Source: Arenibacter amylolyticus
GTDB lineage: Bacteria; Bacteroidota; Bacteroidia; Flavobacteriales; Flavobacteriaceae
DNA: 64,000 nt
Assembly: GCF_002150785.1 (NCBI RefSeq)
Contig: NZ_MTAZ01000049.1
Location: 1-64,000 of the forward strand
Reading direction: 5' to 3'
Every line of letters begins with the position of its first letter. Within the stretch, counting starts at the first letter, position 1. A model generated the notes under the pieces. The model was not told the origin of the DNA. It saw only the letters and a program-made list of their open reading frames with translations, and did not search any database. The translations under genes and the position numbers were made by a program. Of this stretch, positions 5,664 through 26,681 are shown one piece after another.

Positions 5664-7895
5664 CTAGAATTTCACGGATATTTTGCCTCGTAGATAAAAT
5701 GGGCTTCCTGGTGTAAAATGGATTTCTTCAACAGAGGAAGGTTCGTTAAACAGTCTGCTCTCTGTTGCAAATTGGGTTTCGTTCCATTTGGTATCCAGTA
5801 AATTCTCTACAATAAGTCCAACACTCCAATTTTTAAGGGCGTAATTTACATTGAAATCGACCACAGTATATCCTTCAGCCACTATGGAATTGTCCTCATT
5901 GGCGGGTCTGTTTTTTATATATCTAGTATTAAGACTTCCAGAAAAGTTGTTTAAATCCCTAAAGGACAACCCAAGGGAGGAGGTAAGATCTGGTGCTAAT
6001 GGAATGTAGTCCATATCCTGGGGTTCCTCGGTGCTTCTAGCAAAAGTATAGTTTATATCCCCATTAAAGTATAACCAATCATTGAGCTGGTACCTCAGGC
6101 CCAAATCGGCCCCTAATCGCCTTGTTTTCCCACTGGGTTCCACAATTCCGGCATCACCAACATAGACAAATTCCTGTTCCAGAAATAAACTCCAAAGGGT
6201 TGCATTTAATACCAGTTGATCTATGGGTTTTACAATCGTTCCCAAATCCACGGAATAAGCAGCTGGTAATATCTTTTCGCCATTGTTGGCCGTTACAACC
6301 CGAGTGTCATTGGAATGAAAACCGATACCACTTTTCAAATAGAGTTGTAGCATTTGCGAAGCGGAGAATAGGAGGTTAAATTTTGGGCCTAAAAACAGTT
6401 TGTTTTCACTTTTTAGATCATAATCCCCTGTTAGTAGATTTTCATAATCGAATTTGAAATAATCTATCCGCAATCCTGGATTAAACGTCCAGTGGTTTTT
6501 CTTGTAGGTTAAATCAAAAAATCCATATCCGTTAAACTCGTCAATATTTCCGTAAGCGATTCGGTCCAAAAGTTCCTTCCTGTTTTTGGTTTTGGATAAT
6601 TGTACCTTATTAATATCATCATATCTAAAACCAACTCCTGCCTCGTACTTTAATTGGGAGTCATGGTCACCTACGTGTATGGAATGCAGATACTTGGTCT
6701 CTACTCCAAATAGGGTCCGATTTTCCTTTTGTCTTATCTGATCTCCATTTTCTGGGTCTTCCAAGAAAAAGGTGAAATTGGAAAATAATTCAAAATCATA
6801 GGCAGAAACGTACGCTTTGCTGGTGATACTGGCATGTTCGTTTAATTGTTTTCTGTGATTCACCAAAAAATTTGATCTACTTGTATTCCCTCCTTCCGTA
6901 TCATCTATAGCCCCAAACCTTCCAATTAACCCCTGATCTATGGCTCGCTGTGGTATTTGCCCTGAAGCGTCCCATTTACTTTGAAAATGGGATATGGAAA
7001 TACGCAGTTCCTGATCACTCCTATTATTATAGGCATAACGCCCCATAACATTTATCCGGTTAAAATTTTGTGGGGAGGTAAAGGGACCATCAGACAGTAA
7101 TAGTTCCGAGGCGATATAAGCATTGTGATGCGTTCTTTCCAATACTTTTAACATAGCCAGATTTCTAAGAGTATTAAATTGTCCTAGTTCTATGGAAACC
7201 AAGTTGTTTTCTAGCTTGTCCTTCGTATGTAAATCAATATATCCTGCGGTATTAAAATTCCCTTTTTGCGCATAAAATGCCCCCTTCCCAAAATCTATAT
7301 TATCTATGGTTTCTGGAATAATGAAATGCATATCGGCATAACCTTGTCCATGGGCATGAGATACCATATTTACTGGAATTCCATCTACGGAAATGGCGAT
7401 ATCCGTTCCATGATCAATATCGAACCCACGAAGGAATATCTGCTCTGCCTTTCCGCCACCGGCATGTTGACCAATAATAAGTCCTGGGACCTTTCTCAGT
7501 ATCTCCTGAGATGATTTTACGGGATTGGTTTTTACATCCACATTCACAAATTGACTCAGAGCATTTACTTTGGATACCAGAATAACTTGATCCAAGGATA
7601 CAGCAGCCTCTTTCATTATTATTTCAACGGTACTGTCTAAATGCCCTTGGGTTATGGTAAGCTGGTAGTTATGGAACCCTAAACTATAAAAATAGATGTG
7701 GTCTCCAGGGGAGATATCATCTAATTCAAAATATCCGGATACATTGGAATACGTATAGGCTCCGGTTGTTTTATTATAAACGCCCACTCCACTCAATGGG
7801 GTCTGGTCTTCAGATAAAATAGATCCGTTTAAATCATGTGCTCTTAGGTTCTCAAATAGACCTAAAAGCATAATAAAGACAATAAGGTTTTTCAT
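5664..7895 (-). CDS. TonB-dependent outer-membrane receptor with carboxypeptidase-regulatory-like N-domain
   Basis: A 743-residue receptor. A signal peptide (about residues 1-19, ending ENLRA) precedes a CarboxypepD_reg-like domain (residues about 20-95; L-N-G-S-I-L-S, G-V-G-V-Y). The plug follows at about 105-225, with KSSQEILRKVPGLIIG and LRGFDIDHGTDIAISVDG, and then a beta-barrel to the terminal aromatic F. The plug has a His-containing segment NMVSHAHGQGYADMHF, which I associate with a receptor group often placed beside HupE/UreJ-like proteins and metal uptake; that is from memory. It lies 205 bp downstream of the first NRPS gene in the same direction, and a HupE-like gene lies at the other side of the island. 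A role in importing a metal or a metal complex of the island's product is possible. The substrate cannot be assigned. Confidence 0.88.
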   Translation of the reverse strand: MKNLIVFIMLLGLFENLRAHDLNGSILSEDQTPLSGVGVYNKTTGAYTYSNVSGYFELDDISPGDHIYFYSLGFHNYQLTITQGHLDSTVEIIMKEAAVSLDQVILVSKVNALSQFVNVDVKTNPVKSSQEILRKVPGLIIGQHAGGGKAEQIFLRGFDIDHGTDIAISVDGIPVNMVSHAHGQGYADMHFIIPETIDNIDFGKGAFYAQKGNFNTAGYIDLHTKDKLENNLVSIELGQFNTLRNLAMLKVLERTHHNAYIASELLLSDGPFTSPQNFNRINVMGRYAYNNRSDQELRISISHFQSKWDASGQIPQRAIDQGLIGRFGAIDDTEGGNTSRSNFLVNHRKQLNEHASITSKAYVSAYDFELFSNFTFFLEDPENGDQIRQKENRTLFGVETKYLHSIHVGDHDSQLKYEAGVGFRYDDINKVQLSKTKNRKELLDRIAYGNIDEFNGYGFFDLTYKKNHWTFNPGLRIDYFKFDYENLLTGDYDLKSENKLFLGPKFNLLFSASQMLQLYLKSGIGFHSNDTRVVTANNGEKILPAAYSVDLGTIVKPIDQLVLNATLWSLFLEQEFVYVGDAGIVEPSGKTRRLGADLGLRYQLNDWLYFNGDINYTFARSTEEPQDMDYIPLAPDLTSSLGLSFRDLNNFSGSLNTRYIKNRPANEDNSIVAEGYTVVDFNVNYALKNWSVGLIVENLLDTKWNETQFATESRLFNEPSSVEEIHFTPGSPFYLRGKISVKF

Positions 7896-8100: not shown

Positions 8101-11100
8101 CTATTCCTTCATAAGTGTTATTATAGTTTTCTCTATGTATTTCGCATACTTTGAAATTGTGGGTAGTTCAAAAACTTTGTTCAGTGGAAAGTTTAGGTGT
8201 AGCTCATCCTTTAAACGCGCAGTAATCCTAATGGCCGCTAAAGAATGTCCGCCCAAGGCAATAAAATTATCCTGGGTACCTAAACGCTTTAATCCCAACA
8301 CCTCTTGCCAAATTCCAGCCAATAGCTCTTCTATTTCTCCATTTGGTGAAACAAATGGGGTCTCCATTTCCAGTTGTTTATAATCCAGATCCTTTAATGC
8401 TTTTTTATCAACTTTTCCGTTGACGGTAAGGGGAAGTTCTTTCATAAATTTAAAGCGGCTGGGAATCATGTGGTGAGGAAGGCGTTTCTTTAGGAAATCG
8501 GAGAGATCCTTTGAGTTATTAATTCCACTTCCAGTATAATAAGCTACCAGTTGTTTGGGGTTCATCCCAAAGGTATTGGAGTCTTGATATCCAATTTCGT
8601 TCATGATACGCTTTACTTCCTTTTCATTTATAGGCTCGTTGATTTCTTCTAATGTTTCAGTTCGCGTCTTATGTCCCATACGTACATCCCAACTATAGGG
8701 GTAGGCATAATTACTATACCCCAGTTGTTTTTTATGCACATAGATTCCTACCTGATTTATCAGGCAATTGGTAGATCTACCTGTGTCGGTTGGCCGTACC
8801 CAACCTACTTTTTCCTTTAAAAAGGTAAGCATTTCTTCCAAGCGTACATCACTATATCTATAAAAATCCAAAAATTGTACTCTTTCAAAGGTGTCTTCTT
8901 TTTGGAACATGGTAACGTCCAAACATTGTTTTACAGCATCGTCTTCTTGATGGTACAGTTTTCTAGCCTGTAAAATGGTGTCGTCTATAGTTGCTATTTG
9001 AACTTCTTCATCCAAAAACAGCTCCTCCGATAAACGGGTTTCAAAGAATTGACCACGAGATAGGCCAGTGATTATAAAGGGCACCTTTTTCTCCAGAGCA
9101 AGTTTTGTGCTAAGAGTATAGATAGTTTTAAAGCAACCGTTGCAAACGTTGTGATGACGGTGAAGGCTGTCCACAAAAATTTTGTTCATTTGGTCGGTAC
9201 TGCCATAAATATGATCTACTCCAAGCTTGGTTATAATGCTACGGATATTTTCTTTGGCCTGCTCTGATATATAACCATTGTCTAAGGTAAATGCGAGTAC
9301 TTTTAAACCCATATCCACCAACCGTGCCAATACGTAGGTACTATCTTTACCTCCACTTAATAGGGAGATACAATCATAAGTAGGATTCTTTCCTCTATTA
9401 GACATCAACAGGGAAGCTAATTCGTCTTCCGTTTTAAAGTACCGAAGTGCCTTGTCCTTATAGCTTTTAAAAGCATTGCATAGATGACAAACCCCGCTTT
9501 CATCAAAATCCGTTTTGGGGTAGTTGGAGGGAAGGCCACATTGAGTGCAGTGGACAACGTCCTTTTCTGGCAGTCTATTTTCTTCTTCCAGAAGTAGCAC
9601 TGCGCAATTCTTTAAGGCCGGATGTTGCAGTAAATTTGATTCCACCTCCGCCAGTTCAATCCTAACACCTCCAAGCTTTACCTGATCGTCCTTCCTTCCA
9701 AGAAACTCTAGGTCTTTGGAATCGTTCCAACGAGCTAAATCTCCAGTGGAGTATAATTTATCTCCCTTGATAAAGGGATTGGTTATAAACTTCTCAAGGG
9801 TTAAGTTGGGGAGGTTTACATAACCTTCTGCCAGACCAATACCACTAAGAAATAGTTCTCCAACTAATCCATTGGGCACTAGATTGAGGTAGGCATCTAA
9901 AACGTAGGCCTTCATATTATCTATAGGTTTCCCAATAGGGACAATAGTTTTAGTATGTGAGCTTACATCATATTGCGCTACTATACAGCCAACCGTTGCT
10001 TCGGTTGGTCCATATTCGTTAAAGATTTTTATTGGGTTAGTAAAACTGTTTAAAACCGATTTTACAAGCTGGGTCTTTAGGTCTTCCCCTCCAAGAATCA
10101 TCAACTTAATGTTAGACTTTGCTAGATCCATATCAGAGATCAACGTTAAATGTGAAGGGGTAAGCTTAATGGCATTCACAAGGTTGTCCGTAATTACATC
10201 CAAAAATGATAGATCGGGACCCGATTCCATTTCTTGGTAGATAATAAGTTCACCCCCTGTAATCAGCGGTAAAAACGTAGCGGTGATGGTTAAATCAAAG
10301 CCTATGGAGGTGAAAAGTGGCATTTTAATATGATCTTCCAATGCATACGCGCCCTTAGCCCAAGTAAGATAATTTGTGAGGGCAGCATGGGAAATTAGTA
10401 CTCCTTTTGGTTTTCCTGAAGATCCTGAGGTATACAAAATATAAGCGATGTCTGTGGCATGAAGGGAGGGAATCATATCCTTTTCTCCATTAGCCTCCAT
10501 ATTATCGGGATCTACCACCAAATGCATAATATCAATAGTGGATATGGGGTTATCTTCTACAAGGTTTTTACTAGTTAATAGGAGTGCGCTTTCCGAGTCT
10601 TGCAATATTAATGCAACGCGATTTATAGGGGTATCGGAGGGAATTGGAATGAAGGTTCCTCCGGATTTTAATACAGCTATCAGGGCAATGAGGTAGGCAG
10701 GACTTCTTTCCATATATAAGGCAACCCGGCTACCTTTAATAATCCCTTTTTCCAGTAATAAAGTAGCAAGTTGATTCGATTTTTGATCTATTTCCCGGTA
10801 GGTGTACTGTTTATTTCTGTCATATAATGCCGGTTTGTTTGGCTTAGATTTTACCTGTTGTTTAAATTGATGTACTACAGACGAAAAACTAGTAAACTTA
10901 ATAGTTTGACTACGCAATAGCGTTGTTTCTTCTTTTTCCGTAATCATGCTGGGCATTCCTACCGGGTGCTCCAAATTGTCTAGCAGTCCATCCATTAAAT
11001 TTAATAAGTGCATAGGAGCCTGACTCCTGAGTTGAGTGTCAAAAACACTTTCATTAAAATCTAATAGCATCGTTATATCGCCCGTTCCATCAAAGTCCAT

Positions 11101-12249
11101 TACATGACATCGTAAATGGTGTGCAGGATCGCAATGACCGGGGTGTATCCATTCAGAACGCATAGGAATACCATTAAAGTCGTTGAATTGTGCATTAATA
11201 AAATTCAAGATTACATTAAAACTTTTGTTTATTGAGGGGGTAGACATCCCTGGTTGTGCATACCGCAAGTAATTAGCGGTCTCTAATTTAACGCGTTCTA
11301 AAAGCTTGCCAAAACTATCAGTAGCCTCTAATTGAAATATCATGGGAAACAAGGCTATAAAAAGTCCTGGAGTTTGCTTAAAAACCGTAGTGGAACGATT
11401 GTGGGAAGGAATACCGATGGAAATATGTGGATTTTCTGTCACACGGTACAAATAGGCCACCAAAAGCGTAGTAAAGAGATGAAATAGGGTTAAATCCTTT
11501 GTCCATGCCCTAATATCTGGGCGCGCTGCCAATGCCGTTAATTTCCTCATTCTTTCCTTTCCCATATGTAACTGTACTCGACGGGATCTGGTAGATGTTT
11601 TAGCAGGGTGTTTACCGTAAAACTTTGGAGGGCCTAATTGGTTTGCCAGTCTTTGTTTCCAGTAAGATGCTGTTTCCGATTGCTTTTGTGATGCAGTCCG
11701 TTCCGTTTCAAAATCAATGTAGTTGCTATAGGAAGGTATTTCCTTAAAGGCAGCAAGGGTATCTTCCTGTAGATGTCTGTAAAGAGAACTCATTGCCCTA
11801 TATAAAATAGAGGAGGAGCTTGCATCCGTGACTAAATGGTGAATATTGAGAAACCAGATATACCTATTTGGGGACACTTTTAGTAGGACTGAATCGAAGA
11901 GAGGTTGGGAGAGGTTAAAAAGTTGCCGACTTCTATGTTCCATCCAGTTTTGGATGGATTGTTCGGTCTCCGTGCTAACATCCAACACTTCCAGCTTGTA
12001 AGTTAGATGGGGAAGTATGGATTGTACCGGACTTGTCTCTAATTCTGAAAAAACGGTTCGCAAGGCATCCGTTCTGTTAATTAATTCCTGGAATGCCTTG
12101 GAAAATATCTCAGGATTTATGGCACCATTTATTTCAAATGAATGGGCCATATTATAAAGGGGTACCTCTGGATGTAGCTTTTGACCGATCCATAGCGATA
12201 ACTGACTTTTGGTCAGTTTCTTATATGATGAAGTTTCATTAGTACCCAT
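8101..12249 (-). CDS. NRPS module C-A(interrupted by PP-loop amidotransferase domain)-PCP
   Basis: 1382 residues. A condensation domain fills about 1-440, with HHLVTDASS (about 136) for the catalytic HHxxxDG motif. The adenylation domain starts near 450: A3 YTSGSSGKPKG (about 603), A4 FDLT (about 650), A5 NEYGPTE (about 743), A7 STGDL (about 832), A8 GGVRIELAEVE (about 860). After LLLEEENRLPEK the A domain is interrupted by a zinc-ribbon/PP-loop domain of about 335 residues, then resumes at KQLVAYY (about 1230) and reaches A10 NGKVDKK. A carrier domain follows, with ALGGHSL (Ser about 1333). There is no TE. The pocket residues I read are D-L-T-K-I-G-E-V-G-K; the known asparagine code differs only by L for I. 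It starts 7 bp after the free carrier gene. It probably accepts the pyrrolyl starter and adds Asn, which the inserted domain may modify. Confidence 0.9.
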   Translation of the reverse strand: MGTNETSSYKKLTKSQLSLWIGQKLHPEVPLYNMAHSFEINGAINPEIFSKAFQELINRTDALRTVFSELETSPVQSILPHLTYKLEVLDVSTETEQSIQNWMEHRSRQLFNLSQPLFDSVLLKVSPNRYIWFLNIHHLVTDASSSSILYRAMSSLYRHLQEDTLAAFKEIPSYSNYIDFETERTASQKQSETASYWKQRLANQLGPPKFYGKHPAKTSTRSRRVQLHMGKERMRKLTALAARPDIRAWTKDLTLFHLFTTLLVAYLYRVTENPHISIGIPSHNRSTTVFKQTPGLFIALFPMIFQLEATDSFGKLLERVKLETANYLRYAQPGMSTPSINKSFNVILNFINAQFNDFNGIPMRSEWIHPGHCDPAHHLRCHVMDFDGTGDITMLLDFNESVFDTQLRSQAPMHLLNLMDGLLDNLEHPVGMPSMITEKEETTLLRSQTIKFTSFSSVVHQFKQQVKSKPNKPALYDRNKQYTYREIDQKSNQLATLLLEKGIIKGSRVALYMERSPAYLIALIAVLKSGGTFIPIPSDTPINRVALILQDSESALLLTSKNLVEDNPISTIDIMHLVVDPDNMEANGEKDMIPSLHATDIAYILYTSGSSGKPKGVLISHAALTNYLTWAKGAYALEDHIKMPLFTSIGFDLTITATFLPLITGGELIIYQEMESGPDLSFLDVITDNLVNAIKLTPSHLTLISDMDLAKSNIKLMILGGEDLKTQLVKSVLNSFTNPIKIFNEYGPTEATVGCIVAQYDVSSHTKTIVPIGKPIDNMKAYVLDAYLNLVPNGLVGELFLSGIGLAEGYVNLPNLTLEKFITNPFIKGDKLYSTGDLARWNDSKDLEFLGRKDDQVKLGGVRIELAEVESNLLQHPALKNCAVLLLEEENRLPEKDVVHCTQCGLPSNYPKTDFDESGVCHLCNAFKSYKDKALRYFKTEDELASLLMSNRGKNPTYDCISLLSGGKDSTYVLARLVDMGLKVLAFTLDNGYISEQAKENIRSIITKLGVDHIYGSTDQMNKIFVDSLHRHHNVCNGCFKTIYTLSTKLALEKKVPFIITGLSRGQFFETRLSEELFLDEEVQIATIDDTILQARKLYHQEDDAVKQCLDVTMFQKEDTFERVQFLDFYRYSDVRLEEMLTFLKEKVGWVRPTDTGRSTNCLINQVGIYVHKKQLGYSNYAYPYSWDVRMGHKTRTETLEEINEPINEKEVKRIMNEIGYQDSNTFGMNPKQLVAYYTGSGINNSKDLSDFLKKRLPHHMIPSRFKFMKELPLTVNGKVDKKALKDLDYKQLEMETPFVSPNGEIEELLAGIWQEVLGLKRLGTQDNFIALGGHSLAAIRITARLKDELHLNFPLNKVFELPTISKYAKYIEKTIITLMKE
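8553..9565 (-). other. Inserted domain: WbpG-like PP-loop ATP-dependent amidotransferase inside the A domain
   Basis: This is the domain within the NRPS at residues about 895-1230. It begins with a zinc ribbon, CTQCGLPSNYP followed by FDESGVCHLC. It continues with the PP-loop SLLSGGKDSTY (about 963), which binds ATP and forms an adenylated carbonyl, and a further C-N-G-C pair. The tail (GRSTNCLINQ, YVHKKQLGY, YSWDVRMGHKTR, EVKRIMNEIGY) matches the C-terminal half of the N-acetyl-sugar amidotransferase family (TIGR03573; WbpG/WbuX/PtmG). Those enzymes turn an acetamido group into an acetamidino group using ammonia from a HisH-type glutaminase. No such partner lies in the window. The fold is also shared with sulfur-transfer PP-loop enzymes, so amidine or thioamide formation are both possible. 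Confidence 0.85.
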
Positions 12250-12256
12250 AGGCGTT

Positions 12257-12499
12257 TTAGGATTGTTCTTTATTAGTTAAATAGTTGGTGATATGCGATA
12301 CGGTCATAAAGTTCTCAATAATCATATCCTGTGGAGGAACCGTTATATTGTATTTTTGTTCTATAAACAGGATCAGCTTCATCATACCCAAAGAATCTAA
12401 AATACCACTCCCCAATAAATCATCCTGCGGGCTTAGCCCGGATTCCAATTCATTGTTCAGTAAATCCTCACAGATATATGTTATCAATATTTCATTCAT
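12257..12499 (-). CDS. Stand-alone peptidyl carrier protein (PltL-like)
   Basis: An 80-residue carrier protein. The motif LLGSGILDSLGMMKLI carries the serine (in D-S-L) that takes the phosphopantetheine arm. The start is placed at 12499 (MNEILITYI): an earlier in-frame start at 12541 would run 39 bases into the adenylase gene, while 12499 falls one base after that gene's stop. The PltF-PltL-PltE trio (adenylase, carrier, dehydrogenase) makes pyrrole-2-carbonyl-S-carrier from L-proline in pyoluteorin-type pathways, and the same three types are adjacent here. It is probably charged by the Sfp-type transferase encoded at 25869-26681. Confidence 0.9.
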   Translation of the reverse strand: MNEILITYICEDLLNNELESGLSPQDDLLGSGILDSLGMMKLILFIEQKYNITVPPQDMIIENFMTVSHITNYLTNKEQS

Positions 12500-12500
12500 A

Positions 12501-14072
12501 TTAAATAGCCTTAATTTTGTTTTTAAAAGCGAGAAGATCAATTTTACCAGAGCTGGTTTTAGGAAATTCTTTCATTATTTCTATTTTTTGAGGCACCATA
12601 TAAGGGGGGAGGTGTAGTTTGCAGTACAACTTTAGGGCATTAGGAGAAATCATAGTTGTTTTTTCCAACTGGATACCTGCAAAAATCACGGTGTCCGAAG
12701 GACTACTATTCACCAAGCAAACTGCTGCTTTTTTGATTAAATTATGTCGCTCCAGCACCGTCTCTATTTCATCCAACTCAACACGATAGCCTCTAAACTT
12801 CACTTGTCGGTCGTTACGTCCTACAAATACCAGATCGTTTGTAAGGTTCCGTTTTACTAAATCCCCAGTTCTAAAATATTTCTTTGTTTTATTGGAAGAG
12901 GTGTTTTCTAAATAGAACGATTTCTTGGTCAATTCTGGATTATTCCAATACCCTATCATCATGGTATCTGTTTTAACAACCAACTCCCCAACTTGGCCTA
13001 TACCTCTCAACTCTTGATCATTTTCATTCAGTATTTTATACTCATTAGCACCCCAAACCTTGCCAATTGGAACGGGTTTGTCTAGCGGAGGCAATTCATC
13101 TATAAGGTAATGGGTACATTGGTTTACTTCGGCCGGACCGTAAATATTGTAGAATTTGGCATGTGGCCACTCTTGCATTAAAGCCCGTAAATATTTTAAA
13201 GTGAAATTCTCTCCACCAAAAAGGACGCAGCGCAAGGATGTTAGATTATATTCGGAGATTAATCCGCAGAGGTGCAATTGAATCAGTGCAAGAGGCACGG
13301 AATACCAAATGCTAAGCTTTTCCTTCTCCATTAGGGCCAACATACTTACGGGTAATTTGGTATGAGCTTCTGGGATTATAATGGTGGTAGCGCCTGCTAG
13401 CGGCGCGGTAAAATATCCGAATGTGGAGATGTCAAAATGCAATGGGGCATGGTTTCCTACCCGATCTTCCGGGGATACCTTAAATAATTGAGCCGATAAC
13501 CCGGCATAGGTTAAACCGCTTTTATGGGAGTGTACAATGCCCTTTGGTAAACCCGTAGACCCAGAGGTGTACATAATGTACGCTACATCCTCTTCGGCAA
13601 TTAAAATGGGCTTAAAACCTTTTATTTCCACTTGATAAATCTCTTCCCACGGGGTAGTCTGGTAAGTTACTTTAAGCTGCACCCCAATCAACCGCTCCAG
13701 AGGACTTTGGGCCTCCAACAGTTTTTGAAGTTTTTTGGAAAACGTTTCGGTACCTACCACTATTTTAATGTTGGCATCATTTAAAAGAAATACTGTTCTG
13801 GCATGGGGGGCATTGGCATCTAGGGGTACATAGGCCGCACCGGCCTTCATGATCCCATACACTGCAATTACGCTTTCCAAACAGCGGTTCATGAAAATCC
13901 CTACCCGATCGCCCTTCTGAACTCCAACACTGCCCAAGTATTTTGCAAGTTGAGTGGTTTTCACCTCCAATTCACGGTAGGATATAGCTTCCTGCTCAAA
14001 TCTAAAAGCCGCTTTGTGAGGGGATTTATCCGAGGAGTTGCTAATAATATCTACCAGTGTTGTTGTTGACAT
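12501..14072 (-). CDS. Stand-alone adenylation enzyme, PltF-like (L-proline to carrier)
   Basis: A 523-residue single A domain. It shows A3 IMYTSGSTGLPKG (about 165), A5 NIYGPAEVNQCTHY (about 307), A7 FRTGDL, A8 RGYRVELDEIE and A10 SSGKIDLL near the end (the catalytic Lys). It activates an amino acid as the AMP ester and loads it on a separate carrier. The pocket residues I read (D-I-F-Y-L-G-I-Q-C-K) and the N-Q-C-T run after the A5 motif resemble prolyl adenylases of pyrrole pathways (PltF, RedM, CloN4), recalled from memory and not computed. Its position between a carrier gene and a PltE-like dehydrogenase supports L-proline as substrate. A D-alanine-like or other small amino acid cannot be excluded. 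It follows the dehydrogenase gene by 14 bp, so one operon is likely. Confidence 0.85.
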   Translation of the reverse strand: MSTTTLVDIISNSSDKSPHKAAFRFEQEAISYRELEVKTTQLAKYLGSVGVQKGDRVGIFMNRCLESVIAVYGIMKAGAAYVPLDANAPHARTVFLLNDANIKIVVGTETFSKKLQKLLEAQSPLERLIGVQLKVTYQTTPWEEIYQVEIKGFKPILIAEEDVAYIMYTSGSTGLPKGIVHSHKSGLTYAGLSAQLFKVSPEDRVGNHAPLHFDISTFGYFTAPLAGATTIIIPEAHTKLPVSMLALMEKEKLSIWYSVPLALIQLHLCGLISEYNLTSLRCVLFGGENFTLKYLRALMQEWPHAKFYNIYGPAEVNQCTHYLIDELPPLDKPVPIGKVWGANEYKILNENDQELRGIGQVGELVVKTDTMMIGYWNNPELTKKSFYLENTSSNKTKKYFRTGDLVKRNLTNDLVFVGRNDRQVKFRGYRVELDEIETVLERHNLIKKAAVCLVNSSPSDTVIFAGIQLEKTTMISPNALKLYCKLHLPPYMVPQKIEIMKEFPKTSSGKIDLLAFKNKIKAI

Positions 14073-14086
14073 TTATACTTTTTTCA

Positions 14087-15238
14087 TTATAGCCCTAGTA
14101 GGTTGGCAATTATATTCCTTTGTATATCTGAAGTACCTGCATAAATAACCCCCCCAACAGCATCCCTTAAGTCGCGCTCTACCTCCGTGGCGGTTAAATA
14201 CCCACTTCCTCCTTGATTCCGAATGGCATCGAGGCTAGACTGTACAAAGCTTTCACTTAATAGAAGTTTTAAGAGGGCTGCTTCCATCATGGCCGATTTC
14301 CCTATGCTTTTTAGCCAGGCTACCTTATAGAGCATCAGTCTTGAGGTCTCCAGTCTCAGTTTCATATTGGCAATCCGGTTGGATACAGATTGAAAATCCC
14401 CGATAGATTTTCCAAACTGTTTTCGTTGTTTTACAAATTTTATGGTTTCCTCCAATTGGCGTTCCATGGCCCCCAATTGACTGGCAAGAATGGTACACCG
14501 ATCATACTCCAAGGAGGTGGTGGTAATACTCCATCCTGCACCTTCACCCCCTAATCTATTTTCCAGGGGTACAAAACATTCTTTAAATAGTAAATCTCCA
14601 ATTGGTACCGTTCTGAGCCCCATTTTATGTTGATTTTCACCCCTGGTAAAACCTGGCATTCCATTTTCCACTATAAACCCAGTAACGCCCCATTTCCCTA
14701 AGGACTTGTTGGTGCTAGCAAATACAAGGGCTACATCTGCAATTGGCGCCAAGGTAATTAGGCATTTTTTTCCGTTTAGAACATATCCGCCATCGACTTT
14801 GGTGGCAGTGGTTTCCATGGAGAAAATATCGGATCCTGCATTGGGTTCGGTCAGTCCGTGAGAGGCAATCCATTTCCCAGATGCTAGTTTGGGAAGAAAT
14901 CGCTTTTTTTGCATTTCAGTGCCAAATTTGGCAATAGGAAGCTGTACGGTCCACATTTGTGCATTTAACGCAAAGGGAAGTCCGTTGTCCTTACATCCAT
15001 ATCCAAGTCCTTCCATAGCCAAAGTGGCAGATAGTATGTCTATTTCTTTATCCTGCCCTCCGTATGCCGATGGACATGCCAAGGCCTGAATACCAAAGTG
15101 GGCACATTTTTGCCAATCTTCCATGGAAAAGGTACTGCTGACATCATTACTTGCTATGGAATTATTTAATTCTTCCTGTGCAAACTTGATGACCCGGCTT
15201 TTATAATCCAATTGTTCTTTTGTCCAAGTGAAATCCAA
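14087..15238 (-). CDS. Prolyl-carrier dehydrogenase, PltE-like (acyl-CoA dehydrogenase family)
   Basis: A flavoprotein of the acyl-CoA dehydrogenase fold. Diagnostic stretches include GLTEPNAGSDIFS, MERQLEETIKFVKQRKQFGK, RIANMKLRLETSRLMLYK and YAGTSDIQRNIIA. From memory these follow Pseudomonas PltE closely (MERQLEQTIEHARTRRQFGK, RIAQMKLRLESARLLLF). PltE-type enzymes oxidise prolyl-S-carrier by four electrons to pyrrolyl-2-carbonyl-S-carrier. The catalytic Glu lies in the region around TSLEYDR, as in that subfamily. The frame opens at a GTG at 15313 directly after a stop, but LDFTWTKEQ at the TTG 15238 aligns with the PltE start and gives 383 residues, close to the family length of about 380; I prefer it. 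This is probably the first gene of the left-arm operon (dehydrogenase-adenylase-carrier-NRPS). Confidence 0.85.
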   Translation of the reverse strand: MDFTWTKEQLDYKSRVIKFAQEELNNSIASNDVSSTFSMEDWQKCAHFGIQALACPSAYGGQDKEIDILSATLAMEGLGYGCKDNGLPFALNAQMWTVQLPIAKFGTEMQKKRFLPKLASGKWIASHGLTEPNAGSDIFSMETTATKVDGGYVLNGKKCLITLAPIADVALVFASTNKSLGKWGVTGFIVENGMPGFTRGENQHKMGLRTVPIGDLLFKECFVPLENRLGGEGAGWSITTTSLEYDRCTILASQLGAMERQLEETIKFVKQRKQFGKSIGDFQSVSNRIANMKLRLETSRLMLYKVAWLKSIGKSAMMEAALLKLLLSESFVQSSLDAIRNQGGSGYLTATEVERDLRDAVGGVIYAGTSDIQRNIIANLLGL

Positions 15239-15589
15239 ATTTATAGTGGTTTTTGTCCTACATCCAATGATTCTATAAAACTTGGATAGAGGGAGTTGGT
15301 TAAATACGCCCACTTAGTGGGATTTACTTATTTTGATGCTCGCGCCTAAGCGCAATCAATTATTCCAGACGATAGCCTTTTGGAATTGCCCTGAAGCAAT
15401 TACTCTGGTAGCTTGTGTTATATTGATAAAACCTAGGCTAACAAAATTTCAAATAATTTTTCAGCTCGTTAATTAGTATAAGTGATGTATTTTCAACCGA
15501 CTCTTAACCAGAGGGTTGAAGAATAAAGAAGATGGGGTCTAATTTTTATTTTCTTAAATTTAACTAAAATTTTCTTTACACCTACCTAT

Positions 15590-16503: not shown

Positions 16504-17577
16504 CTAGACTTGTACAGAAGTCAATAAAAAGTGATATGGATTTTTCACATCAGAGGAGATATGTTCTAAGTTCACCTTTAAACCAATATTGAATTCCTTG
16601 GCTAGATCCAAGAACAATTCCAAAACAACTTGGTCCTCTAAGGCCCAACCAGTAGAATCGAACACGGATAATTTGTCCTTAAAAAGGTGATAGGCGGTAT
16701 GGTTTTGAATTAATGGAACCAGACTTGGTCCAATTTCTTCTGGCTTCAGCTGCTGGCATTCCCCTTCTATATTTGCCTGTTCAAGGAAATCTGGACAAAC
16801 CAAAGAATCCTTTAATAAGGCTAGGGGCAATTCAATTTTTCCAGGGAAATCCGATCCAATCGCATTGATGTGAAGATGCTTTTGATGGCCTTTGTAATGT
16901 GAAAATATTGGGCCTTCACCTATTCCAATAGAAGTTTGGGTACATAGTATATCAGCCTCCTTTACAATGGCACCTACGTTGAGCGGAATTACTTCTAGAT
17001 TGAGATTCAGCATACTGATTCGTTTATTGAACGATTTTATAACATCGGGGTCAATATCATAAATCATTACTTTTTCAAACTCAAATATTCTGGAAAGGGC
17101 GTGCAATTGTGTTATGGACTGTGCACCACATCCTATAAGTCCTAAAGTTGAGCTGTGTGGGTTTGCAAGGTATTTGCTTGCAACCGCAGATGCCGCTCCT
17201 GTTCGCAAGGCGGTTAATAAAACTCCATCGGCTATACCTTTTAAATGACCGGTTTGAGTGTCATAGCTGGAAATGGAAGACAGAATAGAGGGTAATTTAA
17301 ACTTCTCTGGATTGTTAGGGTGGTATCCTACCACCTTAATAACAATTTCCTTATCCTTATGGTGTAGTGGCATCCACTCAATTAAACCGGGATAATTACT
17401 GGTATAATTAAAACCACTCCTTACGGGTACGTCAGTACATTTTGGATCATAATCCTTAATGGCTGTAGTTAGTCTACGGATAAGGACGTCCATAATATTA
17501 TCCATTCCAAATTTTTCTACAATGCTACAAACATCACTTCCGGAAAGTATCAAGGTGGAATTTTCTTTTTTATACAT
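16504..17577 (-). CDS. Ornithine cyclodeaminase
   Basis: 357 residues of the ornithine cyclodeaminase/mu-crystallin family, which converts L-ornithine to L-proline and ammonia using bound NAD. The NAD-binding Rossmann motif is [13 protein letters not shown] (about 145). The substrate-side residues of true ornithine cyclodeaminase are present: Glu in LIEWMPL, Lys in [10 protein letters not shown] and Asp in [10 protein letters not shown]. The end [11 protein letters not shown] also matches. This agreement argues against the related SbnB (2,3-diaminopropionate) enzymes, and no SbnA-type partner is in the window. In the island it probably supplies proline to the pyrrole-starter genes, which face the same way from 15.2 kb. 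The lysine analogue RapL makes pipecolate, so lysine as substrate cannot be excluded. Its start at 17577 borders a 463 bp divergent promoter region shared with the HupE-like gene. Confidence 0.85.
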
Positions 17578-22251: not shown

Positions 22252-22261
22252 GCCCGGAAAA

Positions 22262-23050
22262 ATGAAAAGAATAAAGAGAACTCAGGATTTTGAAGTGGTC
22301 CTTACCATTCCCGATCCAACTTTTATAAAACCGCCAAGAGAAGCTCAAAGAAATGCGGTAGTCAATAGGGCGCTAAAGGAATTTGGTTCCGATATACAAG
22401 CGCTTCATCAACAGGTAAAAACATTTGTACCTGGCGCAACGGTACAGGCCTTTGATGACCGTACTCAAAAGGCCTTGGAGGATCAGGAAATCATGGAGGA
22501 TTGGCAAATTCCTGTGATGGCTAAAATGGCCGAGGCCATTGCCAACAAAGGGGGTGATATTCTCGAAATTGGATTTGGACGCGGAATAGCCTCCGAGATG
22601 ATTCAGCAATACCCCCTTAGTAGTCACACCATTATTGAATGTAATGACACGGTCGTAGAACGATTTTATAAGTGGAAAAAGCAACACGAATCAAAAGAGA
22701 TTACCTGTGTTCATGGGTTGTGGCAAGATACTATAGATGAACTTGGATTGTTCGATGGAATATTTTTTCATACCTACCCCTTAAACGAGGATGAATACAT
22801 GCGTTATGTTAACGGAAGTATCACTTTCGCCGAACATTTTTTTGAACATGCAAAAAAACATTTGAAACCTGGGGGGGCTTTTACCTACTTTTCCAATGAG
22901 GTTGATTCTTTAAGCAGGGAACATCAGCGGCTACTTTTAAAGTATTTTGATTCCTTCTCGGTTGCCGTGGTAGGCCTGTCTATGCCTGAAGATGTAAAGG
23001 ATACTTGGTGGGCCAATACGATGGCGATTGTAAAAGCGAGTAACTCATGA
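22262..23050 (+). CDS. SAM-dependent methyltransferase, guanidinoacetate N-methyltransferase-like
   Basis: 262 residues. The SAM-binding motif is DILEIGFGRGIASEMI (about 98). Flanking stretches EIMEDWQIPVMAKMAEAIA, HTIIECNDTVVERF and FDGIFFHTYPLNEDE correspond to guanidinoacetate methyltransferase (GAMT) signatures, where the last motif normally reads Y-D-T-Y-P-L. The Asp that binds the guanidino group in GAMT is His here, so the methyl acceptor probably differs. The gene sits exactly where the A domain of this module is split, 10 bp after the C-A gene and overlapping the next gene by ATGA. In single-chain NRPSs a methyltransferase is often inserted at this same A8-A10 point, so this looks like an interrupted A domain dispersed over three genes. 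Likely job: methylating a nitrogen of the carrier-bound residue; inferred. Confidence 0.85.
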   Translation: MKRIKRTQDFEVVLTIPDPTFIKPPREAQRNAVVNRALKEFGSDIQALHQQVKTFVPGATVQAFDDRTQKALEDQEIMEDWQIPVMAKMAEAIANKGGDILEIGFGRGIASEMIQQYPLSSHTIIECNDTVVERFYKWKKQHESKEITCVHGLWQDTIDELGLFDGIFFHTYPLNEDEYMRYVNGSITFAEHFFEHAKKHLKPGGAFTYFSNEVDSLSREHQRLLLKYFDSFSVAVVGLSMPEDVKDTWWANTMAIVKASNS

Positions 23051-25731
23051 ATGAAGCTTTGGAAAATAGCATCCTAAACCTTACTTCAAGCGAGCTTAAA
23101 ATGGTTCGAATGAAGCTCTCACAGTATTTGGAAAAATTACAGGAATTGGAGAAGGAAAAGGGTGCTAAGAGATTGGTGGCCTATATAAGGCCCAAACCTA
23201 ATTTTAATCTGGAGGATTTTCAGATGACTCTTGGGAAAAGGATGCCCGATCATATGATTCCGGCTAAATTCATTCAAGTTGAGGAATTTCCCAAACTGCC
23301 CAATGGCAAGATAGATTTTAGAAAAATAAAAACCAGCACCCAAGAAGCGGTAGGTCCAAGAACGGTTATTGAAAAGCCGAAGAACAAAATAGAAGAGCAG
23401 TTGGTAGCCATATGGGAGAAGGTTTTAAATTTTTCCCCAATCCATACCACCGATAACTTTTTTGAGATAGGGGGAGATTCTATATTAAGCATTCAGATCA
23501 TTGCTAAATTACGGGAATGTGGTATTGATATTACCCCCAACCAATTATTTAAGCATCAGACTATTGCAGCACTATCAGCAGAAGTGAAGTCGTCCCTAAA
23601 ACCAACCTATACCTACAGGCATTTGGTGGAGATTAAGGGAACGGGCAGTAAACCTCCGTTGTACTGTCTTCATGCAGGGGGTATCCATTTATTTTCCTAT
23701 AACCGATTGGCAGATTATATGGATTCCCAAAGGCCTATTTATGCATTGCAGGCCTCCGCAGTAACGGGAAAACTAAAACTCCATAAGAGCGTGGAGGAAA
23801 TGGCCCATGATTTTTTAGATGAAATTAAAATAAATCAACCAAAAGGACCCTACCATATTATGGCCTATTGCTTTAGTACCGCTGTAGGTTTGGAAATCGC
23901 TAGGATTCTTGAAGAGCGTAAAGAGGAGGTGAATTTTATAGTTGTAGATACTATAGCACACTTTCATCAGTTGTTCGCTTGGAATAGGACTAAAACTCGG
24001 ATTTTGAATATTTTGAAGGTTTTACGAGATCGGCGTGTAAATAGGTTTTTTGGCTTAATAAGAAAAAGAATAAAAAGTTTCATAGATCCCAAACTTGTTA
24101 AATATTTAGGGGAAAAAGAAGAAAGAAAAATAGAAAGACTTCGATTAAACTACTTGAAAATATATAAAAAGTATTCATGGGATGTCTACAAGGGGAAATT
24201 TATATTGTTACTAACCGAAAGTGGAGGGAGGCATTTAGTTTCAGACATAATAAAATCATGGGAGAAAATCACCGAAAAAGAGAATGATATAATAGATATT
24301 GAAGGAAAGCATGAGGAACTATTTTCCGATGTTGGGGTAAGGGACACAGCAATCTCTTTAGAATACTGTATGGAGAATTTTGAAAATGAATTGGATAAAA
24401 CTTTTGAACGAAACCTTCAAAGTAATATCCTGTTAACACCCATTCAGCATTGGTTTTTTGATACGCACAAAAGACAACCACATTATTGGAATCAAATCGT
24501 CCGTTTAACGAATGTAGGTTCTTTAGATCAGACTAATATTAAATCAATTTTGGATTTTCTGGTATTTCAACATGATGCACTTCGGCTCAGTTTTAGTAAC
24601 AATACAGATGGTTGGAAGGCAAATTTGCATCCCAAAAAAAATGTGGAAGTTTTTCGATTAGTGGACCTGAGCCAAACAGAGGATGTACTTGAACAGAATA
24701 AAGAGATTAAAGAAGTTATATTGGGTGTTCAGGAGAAGTGTAGCTTGGTTGACGGCCCATTATTTAAATGTCTTTTTTTTAAATGTGGAGAATTACAGGA
24801 AAATAAGATCTATTTATTGGCTCACCATTTAGTTATTGACTCGGTATCATGGAGTTTACTTAACAAAAATTTTAATACGGGAGTAAAACATCAATTTAAA
24901 AAGAAGCCCATAGTTTTATCGGGAAAGACACTTTCCATTAAACAATGGGGTGAATATCTTTTGGAATTATCAACTTCTCCCGAAATATTGAAAGAACTGC
25001 CATTTTGGGAGATGCAGAAGGAAGACTCCTATATGTTTCCATCAGATTATACACAGAGGAATAATCACTTTGAGGAGTGTAGTATAAAAGTATTAAAGGC
25101 CGTAATAAGTGAAGAGGAAACCTCACTAATGTTACAAGGAACTGATTGGGGGTTTAGTACAGAAATTGAGGAGTTATTGATTACGGTTCTTCATACTGTG
25201 CTTAGTGAGTGGAGCAATTTGGAACGGATATGTTTCGGATTGGAAAAACATGGTCGTAATGCCGGCATCTTGGAGGTAGATGTTTCAAATACTGTTGGAT
25301 GGTTCACTTCCTATTTTCCTATTTCAATAAATATTTCAAAAACTTCCACTTTAAAAGCACGATTAAAACATGTTAGTGAACAATTAAGGTCGGTCCCTAA
25401 CGATGGGATAGGCTATGGTATATTAAAATATCTTAATCAGGATCAGAGAAGAAATAGTAAACTGAGACAAAAGCCGCAAGTAATTTTCAATTATTTGGGT
25501 ATAAGTAGTGATAACAAGAATGGATCTAATGTGGGATTCAAAATGATTAATAAGTGGAGTCGTCATCCAAATAGTGAGCGTAGTTATGGTTTGGAAGTGA
25601 ATGCAATCATAGAGAATGGGCAATTGCGAATGAATTGGAGTTACAGTACCGAATTATTTAAAGAAACCACCGTTAAAAATTTAGTTGCTAGGTATAATAC
25701 AGTTTTACGTGAAATTCTTTTGCAATGCTAG
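23047..25731 (+). CDS. NRPS: C-terminal end of A domain, PCP, TE and epimerisation domain
   Basis: 894 residues. A helical N-terminus (residues 1-38) is followed by the missing end of an A domain: RLVAYIRPKP, MPDHMIPAKF and A10 NGKIDFRK (about 84-91). The carrier domain follows with EIGGDSILS (Ser about 145). A thioesterase spans about 195-450: the nucleophile elbow reads AYCFS, so Cys is where GxSxG has Ser; VVDT supplies Asp and GKHEEL a His. From about 455 to the end is an epimerisation domain: HHLVIDSVSW, EKHGRN, VGWFTSYFP, GIGYGILKY and FNYLG are the E motifs. An E domain behind a TE is unusual, since E normally follows the carrier directly. The start ATG overlaps the methyltransferase stop (ATGA). 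It probably releases the product and sets a D-residue. Confidence 0.88.
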   Translation: MNEALENSILNLTSSELKMVRMKLSQYLEKLQELEKEKGAKRLVAYIRPKPNFNLEDFQMTLGKRMPDHMIPAKFIQVEEFPKLPNGKIDFRKIKTSTQEAVGPRTVIEKPKNKIEEQLVAIWEKVLNFSPIHTTDNFFEIGGDSILSIQIIAKLRECGIDITPNQLFKHQTIAALSAEVKSSLKPTYTYRHLVEIKGTGSKPPLYCLHAGGIHLFSYNRLADYMDSQRPIYALQASAVTGKLKLHKSVEEMAHDFLDEIKINQPKGPYHIMAYCFSTAVGLEIARILEERKEEVNFIVVDTIAHFHQLFAWNRTKTRILNILKVLRDRRVNRFFGLIRKRIKSFIDPKLVKYLGEKEERKIERLRLNYLKIYKKYSWDVYKGKFILLLTESGGRHLVSDIIKSWEKITEKENDIIDIEGKHEELFSDVGVRDTAISLEYCMENFENELDKTFERNLQSNILLTPIQHWFFDTHKRQPHYWNQIVRLTNVGSLDQTNIKSILDFLVFQHDALRLSFSNNTDGWKANLHPKKNVEVFRLVDLSQTEDVLEQNKEIKEVILGVQEKCSLVDGPLFKCLFFKCGELQENKIYLLAHHLVIDSVSWSLLNKNFNTGVKHQFKKKPIVLSGKTLSIKQWGEYLLELSTSPEILKELPFWEMQKEDSYMFPSDYTQRNNHFEECSIKVLKAVISEEETSLMLQGTDWGFSTEIEELLITVLHTVLSEWSNLERICFGLEKHGRNAGILEVDVSNTVGWFTSYFPISINISKTSTLKARLKHVSEQLRSVPNDGIGYGILKYLNQDQRRNSKLRQKPQVIFNYLGISSDNKNGSNVGFKMINKWSRHPNSERSYGLEVNAIIENGQLRMNWSYSTELFKETTVKNLVARYNTVLREILLQC

Positions 25732-25868: not shown

Positions 25869-26681
25869 ATGAACAAGGGTTTCGGATTGGGGCCATTTAA
25901 ATTAATCACCAATATGATAGGGGGTAAATCATTGGATCTTGCTAGTTTAGAATCAGGGGCTGTACATATATGGTATATTGATGCTTCAGCTAGAATAGAT
26001 AGTCGTTATTATGAAATGTTAAATGCGTGCGAAAAAATAAGGGCAGAAAAGTATAAGTTTATTAAAGATAAAAATATGTTTATAACTGCTCGCTCAGTTT
26101 TGAGAATGTTGTCTGCATTTTACCTTAACAAAACTCCTTCTCAAATAGAGATTAAATATGGCCCATTTGGTAAGCCATATCTCTATGGGGAAAACAGATT
26201 GAAATTTAATATTTCCCACTCAGGTTGCCGGGTTGTGCTGGCTTTTTGTAAACAGGGAGCTATAGGAGTTGATATTGAAAAGATAAAGACCAATTTTGAT
26301 GTAATGGAAATAGCTGAAAATTATTTCTCAGAAATGGAAGTCAATGCACTTGGCGCAATCCCCCAAGCTGACCAGAAAAAGGCGTTTTTTCGTTGTTGGA
26401 CTCGGAAAGAATCCTTTTTAAAAGCAATTGGAGAAGGGCTTTCCCTTCCATTAGATTCATTTTCTGTTACCCTTGATGGCGATAAGAATGCTGTATTGCT
26501 AGAAACAAAATGGGATCCATCTGAAAAAGAGAAATGGAAAATGTTTTCATTTGTACCGGACACCAATTACATGGGAGCGATTTCTGTCCACTCTAACATT
26601 GAAAATATTAAATATTACAGATGGGATAAATTCAAGGAATTGCTTCTTTGTGAAGAAAGACATCCAAACGATCGCCAATAA
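25869..26681 (+). CDS. 4'-phosphopantetheinyl transferase, Sfp type
   Basis: A 270-residue enzyme that moves phosphopantetheine from CoA to carrier-domain serines. It has the Sfp-family motifs: FGKPYL and FNISHSGCRVVLAF, then the Mg-binding IGVDIEKIK (about 137), and FRCWTRKESFLKAIGEGLS (about 174) with the W-x-x-K-E-S/A core. It comes 137 bp after the TE-E gene on the same strand and closes the island, and it would activate the three carrier sites encoded there. No second phosphopantetheinyl transferase is in the window. The first about 40 residues, before VHIWYIDAS, are longer than usual, so the true start may be internal. Confidence 0.92.
   Translation: MNKGFGLGPFKLITNMIGGKSLDLASLESGAVHIWYIDASARIDSRYYEMLNACEKIRAEKYKFIKDKNMFITARSVLRMLSAFYLNKTPSQIEIKYGPFGKPYLYGENRLKFNISHSGCRVVLAFCKQGAIGVDIEKIKTNFDVMEIAENYFSEMEVNALGAIPQADQKKAFFRCWTRKESFLKAIGEGLSLPLDSFSVTLDGDKNAVLLETKWDPSEKEKWKMFSFVPDTNYMGAISVHSNIENIKYYRWDKFKELLLCEERHPNDRQ

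What the first reader, a model, noticed from the sequence alone, without database searches (positions are those of the whole stretch)
8553..9565. PP-loop amidotransferase domain inserted inside an NRPS adenylation domain
Between A8 and A10 of the 1382-residue NRPS lies a whole zinc-ribbon plus PP-loop ATPase (CTQCG, FDESGVCHLC, SGGKDS) of the WbpG/TIGR03573 type. A-domain interruptions known to me carry methyltransferases or oxygenases, not an amidotransferase. It could activate an amide carbonyl on the carrier-bound residue with ATP and install N (amidine) or S (thioamide). No HisH-like glutaminase is in the window, so the N or S donor is open. I know of no described example, but cannot search.
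Basis: partly seen in the sequence, partly recalled or inferred. Interest (0 to 1): 0.92.

Follow-up and report, generated by a model that had tools for sequence, protein, structure and literature searches.

The report
Asparagine-to-nitrile domain inside peptide synthetase
A peptide-making enzyme carries an extra ATP-using domain inside its amino-acid-loading domain; the same arrangement is already known from two antibiotic pathways, where it is shown or proposed to turn loaded asparagine into a nitrile, but here it sits in an uncharacterised gene cluster that looks like a metal-uptake pathway.

Summary
One open frame (8101-12249, minus) encodes C-A-[zinc ribbon + PP-loop]-A-PCP, with the insert between A8 and A9/A10. 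It is no assembly join: two same-family genomes share it, and in the 80 best database loci it lies inside an A domain (78 with both halves, 2 cut by contig ends). 'No described example' is wrong: this is the AMDH architecture of CysH (cystobactamid) and AlbIV (albicidin); CysH dehydrates carrier-bound asparagine to beta-cyano-alanine in vitro (PMC7966384). The window has an Asn-type code, 51% insert identity to a probable AlbIV, and no TauD hydroxylase in the genome. Best reading: ATP-dependent conversion of PCP-bound Asn to beta-cyano-alanine or isoasparagine. Additions: (1) a cysteine triad (C1036, C1039, C1162; 83 of 83 inserts) matches CtaC's [4Fe-4S] site and may explain why CysH is brown; (2) 49 of 60 related loci of at least 14 kb also encode a HupE/UreJ-type permease homolog, suggesting a widespread metallophore-like family.

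The parts
8101..12249 (-). NRPS1: C-A-[AMDH-type insert]-A-PCP, 1382 aa
10915..12216 (-). Condensation domain, residues 12-445
9595..10866 (-). A-domain core, residues 462-885; specificity residues DLTKIGEVG (Asn type)
8575..9564 (-). Insert: zinc ribbon plus PP-loop (AANH/AMDH-type) domain, residues 896-1225
9478..9549 (-). Zinc-ribbon cysteines C901, C904, C924 (83 of 83 inserts) and C921 (82 of 83)
9340..9357 (-). ATP-binding motif SGGKDS, residues 965-970
9133..9144 (-). C1036xxC1039, first part of the putative [4Fe-4S] site
8764..8766 (-). C1162, third cysteine of the putative [4Fe-4S] site
8380..8568 (-). A-domain C-terminal subdomain, residues 1228-1290
8134..8325 (-). Carrier protein (PCP), residues 1309-1372
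12257..12541 (-). Stand-alone carrier protein between ligase and NRPS1
   Evidence: equivalents in L021 and L023
12501..14072 (-). Stand-alone adenylating ligase, code DIFYLGIQC (resembles proline:PCP ligases by recall)
14087..15313 (-). Acyl-CoA-dehydrogenase-family enzyme nearest PigA and RedW (prolyl-PCP to pyrrolyl-PCP type), below their cut-offs
16504..17577 (-). Ornithine cyclodeaminase/mu-crystallin family protein
5664..7895 (-). TonB-dependent receptor, 743 aa
18041..19303 (+). HupE/UreJ_2-family membrane protein, the only one found in the genome
19330..22251 (+). NRPS2 first part: C and A core, code DSA(M)IAEVW, position 278 read by eye (His type)
22262..23050 (+). Methyltransferase-like ORF (Pfam matches below cut-off) between the two halves of the NRPS2 A domain
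23047..25731 (+). NRPS2 second part: A subdomain (by similarity), PCP, thioesterase, C
25869..26681 (+). 4'-phosphopantetheinyl transferase

Best explanation
The insert is an AMDH-type domain: a zinc-ribbon PP-loop (AANH) ATPase inserted between A8 and A9 of an asparagine-activating A domain, as in CysH and AlbIV. The A domain loads L-Asn onto the adjacent PCP. The insert then uses ATP to activate the side-chain amide oxygen of PCP-bound Asn and eliminates it, giving beta-cyano-L-alanine, or rearranges Asn to isoasparagine. Shown elsewhere, for CysH: in vitro dehydration of loaded Asn that needs this domain, and loss of both modified linkers in vivo when it is deleted. Shown here: same architecture, insertion site, specificity code and motifs. 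Inferred: that the window's domain runs the same reaction; adenylation as the activation step (by analogy with other PP-loop enzymes); a [4Fe-4S] cluster on C1036/C1039/C1162; and a lean towards nitrile, because no TauD-type hydroxylase like CysJ is encoded. That lean is modest: after cysJ deletion the major cystobactamids carried isoasparagine or asparagine linkers, beside substantial nitrile. The cluster probably makes a small peptide (starter acid, modified Asn, His-type residue) for metal uptake.
For: Architecture and motifs. Asn-type code in 82 of 82 readable of 83 A domains. PMC12283262 (passages) gives DLTKIGEVGK as also compatible with beta-cyano-alanine, found only in albicidin, whose A domain carries a 342-residue AANH-like insertion. 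CysH AMDH biochemistry, and the statement that its BLAST homologs are all inserted into Asn-type A domains (PMC7966384). L083 (Xanthomonas albilineans), whose ORFs of 343, 167 and 941 aa fit albII-albIII-albIV by recall, has the same insert at 51.3% identity and the same code; its insert scores alike on TIGR03573 (150.1 bits). L090, sister of L083 in the tree (support 100; 65% identical), lies in what I read by eye as a pABA-type cluster. 85 of 86 rows labelled insert form one group with support 100. Insert model pLDDT 92; Foldseek gives an N-acetyl sugar amidotransferase first (TM 0.60), then TtuA, YcfA and LarE (TM 0.30-0.40). No TauD domain in the genome.
Against: Identity to the probable AlbIV insert is only 51%, and that label rests on recalled gene sizes; the CysH sequence was not fetched. 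CysH and AlbIV are stand-alone modules, whereas here the insert is in a C-A-PCP elongation module. In the cysJ deletion of cystobactamid, isoasparagine and asparagine were the major linkers. The cysteine triad is that of sulfur-inserting enzymes. More distant clostridial relatives sit in A domains that I read by eye as non-Asn (L137, L139). The PDB 'nitrile synthetase' match (9leh/9lei, E 0.005) spans only the ATP-loop stretch and says little.
Confidence: 0.8

Rival explanations
1. Thioamide synthetase in cis, CtaC-like: the insert adenylates an amide of the PCP-bound residue or dipeptide and a [4Fe-4S]-bound sulfide replaces oxygen.
For: CtaC needs its ATP site and C154/C157/C284 and works only on PCP-bound substrates (PMC6772006). 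The insert has SGGKDS plus CxxC and a distal Cys in 83 of 83, aligned with those of CtaC. Foldseek lists TtuA next after the sugar amidotransferase, and the best profile match among PDB sequences is LarE 8cnz (name). A pyrrole/thioamide pair would suit a metal chelator (inference).
Against: The characterised homolog CysH dehydrates or isomerises Asn in a buffer for which no sulfide is listed, and the albicidin and cystobactamid linkers are nitrile, asparagine or isoasparagine types. The conserved Asn code points to side-chain chemistry.
Confidence: 0.1
2. A sub-case of the best explanation: the outcome is isoasparagine, not nitrile. It may arise by exchanging the thioester and amide ends, for example through an aminosuccinimide, with no movement of the amine.
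For: CysH makes isoasparagine, most efficiently from beta-hydroxy-Asn, and isoasparagine and asparagine linkers remained the major products after cysJ deletion. Converting beta-hydroxy-Asn to alpha-hydroxy-isoAsn by moving the amine would also require moving the hydroxyl; swapping the two acyl ends gives it directly (my inference from the structures named). Uniformly 13C/15N-labelled Asn, the label described, cannot tell the two routes apart.
Against: After cysJ deletion the isoasparagine/asparagine ratio fell six- to eightfold and nitrile became substantial; no TauD-type hydroxylase is encoded here; no isoasparagine albicidin is known. In vitro mass spectrometry saw the nitrile but cannot see the isomer.
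Confidence: 0.27
3. An amidotransferase in the WbpG/TIGR03573 sense: ammonia from a glutaminase attacks the activated amide to give an amidine.
For: Best PP-loop match in NCBIfam is TIGR03573, and the best solved match by single sequence and by fold is an N-acetyl sugar amidotransferase.
Against: Below the TIGR03573 cut-off. 14 of 15 readable stand-alone relatives from the window's order lack the CxxC..C triad. No GATase-family glutaminase on the contig.
Confidence: 0.03
4. A structural or regulatory relic with no catalysis.
For: A more distant relative, in a genome that I identify as Ruminiclostridium cellulolyticum, has a degenerate PP-loop, SGGRGA.
Against: The insert is more conserved than the C and A domains around it; SGGKDS and the cysteine triad are present in 83 of 83 inserts (SGGKDST was also one of two search patterns).
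Confidence: 0.03

Closest known systems
AMDH domain of CysH (cystobactamid biosynthesis)
   Same: Insert inside an Asn-activating A domain followed by a carrier domain; SGGKD motif (PMC7966384)
   Different: CysH is a stand-alone module served by hydroxylase CysJ, methyltransferase CysQ and shuttle CysB; here the insert is in a C-A-PCP elongation module in a cluster with metal-transport-type genes, and the genome has no TauD domain
AlbIV (albicidin biosynthesis)
   Same: Code DLTKIGEVGK, 342-residue AANH-like insertion, beta-cyano-alanine in the product (PMC12283262)
   Different: 51% insert identity to the probable AlbIV locus L083; stand-alone module; its reaction is proposed, not proven
CtaC thioamide synthetase (closthioamide)
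   Same: PP-loop AANH, cysteine-rich N-terminus, CxxC..C triad, PCP-bound substrate
   Different: Stand-alone protein that inserts S; grouped with the inserts only weakly in a quick tree (support 57)
WbpG/TIGR03573 N-acetyl sugar amidotransferases
   Same: Zinc ribbon and PP-loop; best PP-loop match in NCBIfam
   Different: Score below cut-off; 14 of 15 readable stand-alone relatives from the window's order lack the triad
A domains interrupted by methyltransferase, ketoreductase, oxidase or monooxygenase domains
   Same: Usual insertion site A8-A9 (PMC11355689 and PMC8097286, passages)
   Different: Different inserted enzyme; the passages seen do not mention an AANH insertion

Membership tests
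AMDH-interrupted Asn A domain (CysH/AlbIV) | Insert lies inside an A domain, between A8 and A9 | tested here: met
AMDH-interrupted Asn A domain (CysH/AlbIV) | A domain has Asn-type specificity residues | tested here: met
   DLTKIGEVG
AMDH-interrupted Asn A domain (CysH/AlbIV) | SGGKD ATP-binding motif | tested here: met
AMDH-interrupted Asn A domain (CysH/AlbIV) | Sequence homology to the AlbIV/CysH insert | tested here: met
   51.3% to L083, AlbIV by recalled gene sizes; 85 of 86 insert rows in one group, support 100. The CysH sequence itself was not fetched.
AMDH-interrupted Asn A domain (CysH/AlbIV) | Dehydrates or isomerises PCP-bound Asn | not testable with these tools
   needs protein mass spectrometry
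TIGR03573 N-acetyl sugar amidotransferase | Score above curated cut-off 203.2 | tested here: not met
   140.4 bits
TIGR03573 N-acetyl sugar amidotransferase | Partner glutaminase nearby | tested here: not met
   5 GATase domains in the genome, none on this contig; other glutaminase families were not tested
Fe-S PP-loop enzymes (CtaC/TtcA/TtuA) | CxxC plus distal Cys after the PP-loop | tested here: met
   C1036, C1039, C1162; 83 of 83 inserts; aligned with CtaC
Fe-S PP-loop enzymes (CtaC/TtcA/TtuA) | Binds a [4Fe-4S] cluster | not testable with these tools
   CysH is reported dark brown
NRP thioamide synthetase | O to S exchange on the carrier-bound peptide | not testable with these tools
   no sulfur chemistry reported for CysH in the passages read

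The most novel reading that the evidence does not exclude
AMDH domains are [4Fe-4S]-dependent PP-loop enzymes acting on the amide carbon of carrier-bound Asn, and the window belongs to a large, cross-phylum family of uncharacterised clusters (pyrrole- or other starter acid, modified Asn, His-type residue that is sometimes methylated, HupE/UreJ-type permease, and a TonB receptor in Bacteroidota) that make a new class of small metallophore for nickel, cobalt, copper or zinc.
Probability: 0.4. Interest if true: 0.78.

Novelty: new member of a known kind. Interest (0 to 1): 0.5.

Why it matters
The domain is known, but its mechanism is called unknown in PMC7966384. A conserved cysteine triad shared with CtaC gives a testable cofactor hypothesis for nitrile formation on an assembly line. 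The recurring neighbourhood of a metal-permease homolog across phyla points to a widespread, uncharacterised family of natural products, probably metallophores, that could be sought through this domain.

Tried and rejected
Thioamide synthetase was my leading reading until; the CysH/AlbIV precedent displaced it. Riboswitches: one tRNA and nothing else in the window, nothing in 7 related loci, at Rfam gathering scores. A shared palindrome upstream of HupE: the commonest occurs in 2 of 55 upstream regions. Solved relatives of the TonB receptor: none at E 1e-5 by phmmer. The EntS-like MFS gene (2891-4171) was not found near any related synthetase (0 of 84 locus rows), so it is left out of the parts. 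Scripts that sought stand-alone relatives first used too narrow a motif; one search replaces them, with 4 of 40 loci unreadable (L016, L115, L116, L128; the last three are NRPS-sized frames, and L137, which covers L116, shows a degenerate PP-loop).

Caveats. Neighbour counts are tblastn matches within at most 10 kb of the insert, so distant genes are missed, and the 'carrier protein' count may include carrier domains of other synthetases. Phyla are hand-sorted from record titles, many of them metagenome bins. The novelty check rests on ten searches of open-licence papers; most subscription papers are not held. antiSMASH has a 'thioamide-NRP' class (listing, passages); whether it flags these clusters was not tested.

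Full report
What is there. The 1382-residue ORF at 8101-12249 (minus) reads C-A(core)-insert-A(sub)-PCP in one frame. The insert, residues 896-1225, has a four-cysteine zinc ribbon, a PP-loop SGGKDS, a CxxC at 1036-1039 and a further cysteine at 1162. It scores on TIGR03573 at 140.4 bits, under the cut-off of 203.2.

It is real. Of 296 genomes of the same order, 18 (the window's own included) match the insert; two others, G291 and G286 of the same family, carry it in an NRPS-sized frame (71% and 68%), and the remaining matches are in frames of 378-621 aa. Between the three synthetases the insert (74/70%) is better conserved than C (40/41%), A core (51/50%) and A sub (49/48%), and slightly better than the PCP (66/68%). 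In all 80 the insert lies in an A domain, with both A halves found in 78 and one half in L068 and L074, where the contig ends. By record title they fall in 14 phyla (32 Bacteroidota, 15 Actinomycetota, 9 Pseudomonadota, 4 Cyanobacteria, 4 Acidobacteriota, 13 in nine others; 3 unnamed).

What it is. The specificity residues are DLTKIGEVG in 61 of 83 and close variants in 21; 1 is unreadable. PMC12283262 (passages only) says that DLTKIGEVGK is also compatible with beta-cyano-alanine, that this residue was found only in albicidin, and that its A domain carries a 342-residue insertion, probably of the AANH superfamily, suggesting that AlbIV converts Asn in situ. PMC7966384 (section 7 read whole, other passages) names the domain AMDH, shows that CysH dehydrates loaded Asn in vitro only when the domain is present, shows in vivo that deleting it abolishes cyano-alanine and isoasparagine linkers, and states that its BLAST homologs are all inserted into Asn-type A domains and that none could be linked to a known metabolite. 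L083, from Xanthomonas albilineans, has ORFs of 343, 167 and 941 aa in a row; by recalled gene sizes these are albII-albIII-albIV. Its insert is 51.3% identical to the window's. The window is therefore a new member of a described architecture.

Mechanism. By analogy with other PP-loop enzymes I infer that ATP adenylates the side-chain amide oxygen and AMP leaves to give the nitrile. PMC7966384 reports purified CysH as dark brown, found no CxxCxxxC motif, and calls the mechanism unknown. C1036, C1039 and C1162 are present in 83 of 83 inserts and align with C154, C157 and C284 of CtaC, whose [4Fe-4S] role is in PMC6772006 (parts 1-2 of 3 read). L135 was recognised as CtaC because all five residues named in that paper fall at the right numbers; its genome, unnamed in the tool, has the size that I recall for R. 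cellulolyticum. Of 15 readable stand-alone relatives from the window's order, 14 lack the triad; of 21 readable loci from a clostridial order, 17 have it, two of them NRPS inserts (4 of 40 loci unreadable). The insert model (pLDDT 92) matches an N-acetyl sugar amidotransferase first (TM 0.60), then the Fe-S sulfurtransferase TtuA, YcfA and LarE (TM 0.30-0.40), with asparagine synthetase and carbapenam synthetase further down. By profile, LarE 8cnz is the best PDB sequence match. So the domain is built on a scaffold shared with Fe-S PP-loop enzymes; what a cluster would do here is open.

On isoasparagine. Going from beta-hydroxy-Asn to alpha-hydroxy-isoAsn by moving the amine would need the hydroxyl to move as well. 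Exchanging the thioester and amide ends of the same molecule gives that product directly, and suits an amide-activating enzyme. This is my inference; I did not see it in the sections read. The absence of a TauD-type hydroxylase in the genome leans towards nitrile, but only modestly: after cysJ deletion the major cystobactamids had isoasparagine or asparagine linkers, beside substantial nitrile.

The cluster. The window also encodes a stand-alone carrier protein and ligase, a PigA/RedW-like dehydrogenase (below cut-off), an ornithine-cyclodeaminase-family protein, a HupE/UreJ_2 protein, a TonB receptor, a second synthetase with a His-type code, and a PPTase; PMC12283262 assigns DSALIAEVWK to His. 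In one search I looked at 14 loci: 9 show DSA-x-(I, M or P)AEVW, one differs (L065), one is unreadable (L089), and in 3 no second A code was read. Of 60 related loci of at least 14 kb, 49 have a HupE homolog, 45 a carrier protein, 40 the ligase, 32 the dehydrogenase, 26 the TonB receptor and 7 the methyltransferase; outside Bacteroidota 23 of 33 have HupE and 1 of 33 the receptor. The 11 without HupE include L083 and its sister L090. In 296 genomes a HupE homolog of 53% or more occurs only in the three with this synthetase; 10 others have weaker matches of 29-45%. Against a dedicated receptor: homologs of the TonB protein (44% or more) occur in 38 of 296, and the closest, 75%, is in G133, which has no insert match. 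In G158 and G261, which also have no insert match, the receptor homolog lies beside a distant HupE. HupE/UreJ proteins are known as nickel/cobalt permeases (recalled). I infer a metallophore; the metal is unknown, and no riboswitch or shared operator was found.

Against my reading. The Asn rule is not universal: L137 and L139, from clostridia, have the insert in A domains that I read by eye as non-Asn, and L137 has a degenerate PP-loop. One NRPS-sized frame, L119, falls outside the insert group. The window's module elongates in cis, unlike CysH and AlbIV. Thioamide formation cannot be excluded by sequence.

Noticed in passing
window 19330-25731: The A domain of the second synthetase is split over three ORFs: C-A core, a separate methyltransferase-like ORF, then A sub-PCP-TE-C. 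The same order in different frames is seen in L042 and L065; in L091 (all three parts) and L075 (first two parts) the matches share one frame, stops between them not checked.
   Followed up: partly
L137:5829-12257: NRPS of a genome that I identify as Ruminiclostridium cellulolyticum, whose A domain seems interrupted twice: a radical-SAM-like stretch (CxxxCxxC by eye, no HMM run) before A3 and an AMDH-like insert with a degenerate PP-loop (SGGRGA) after A8.
   Followed up: partly
L139:8623-12771 and 12809-14680: Clostridial A-[insert]-A-PCP-C protein with a non-Asn code by eye, next to a gene that looks like an asparagine synthetase (by eye).
   Followed up: no
L119: A 1715-aa clostridial frame contains an Fe-S-type PP-loop domain (SGGVDS) outside the main insert group; possibly a separate fusion.
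   Followed up: no
L005: Stand-alone 398-aa frame with the full cysteine triad in a genome of the window's family.
   Followed up: no
G158:C17:20528-23608 and G261:C66:283361-286399: Homologs of the window's TonB receptor sit beside a distant HupE homolog in genomes with no match to the insert.
   Followed up: no
L021:17701-18168: A small 155-aa protein with a His-rich stretch lies between the synthetase and the TonB receptor; it has matches in 23 of 84 locus rows, itself included, and no Pfam match. The window has no such ORF of 100 aa or more between its two genes.
   Followed up: partly
L033:2288-2569: Only two short matches to the methyltransferase lie between the A halves of the second synthetase, suggesting a degraded copy.
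   Followed up: no
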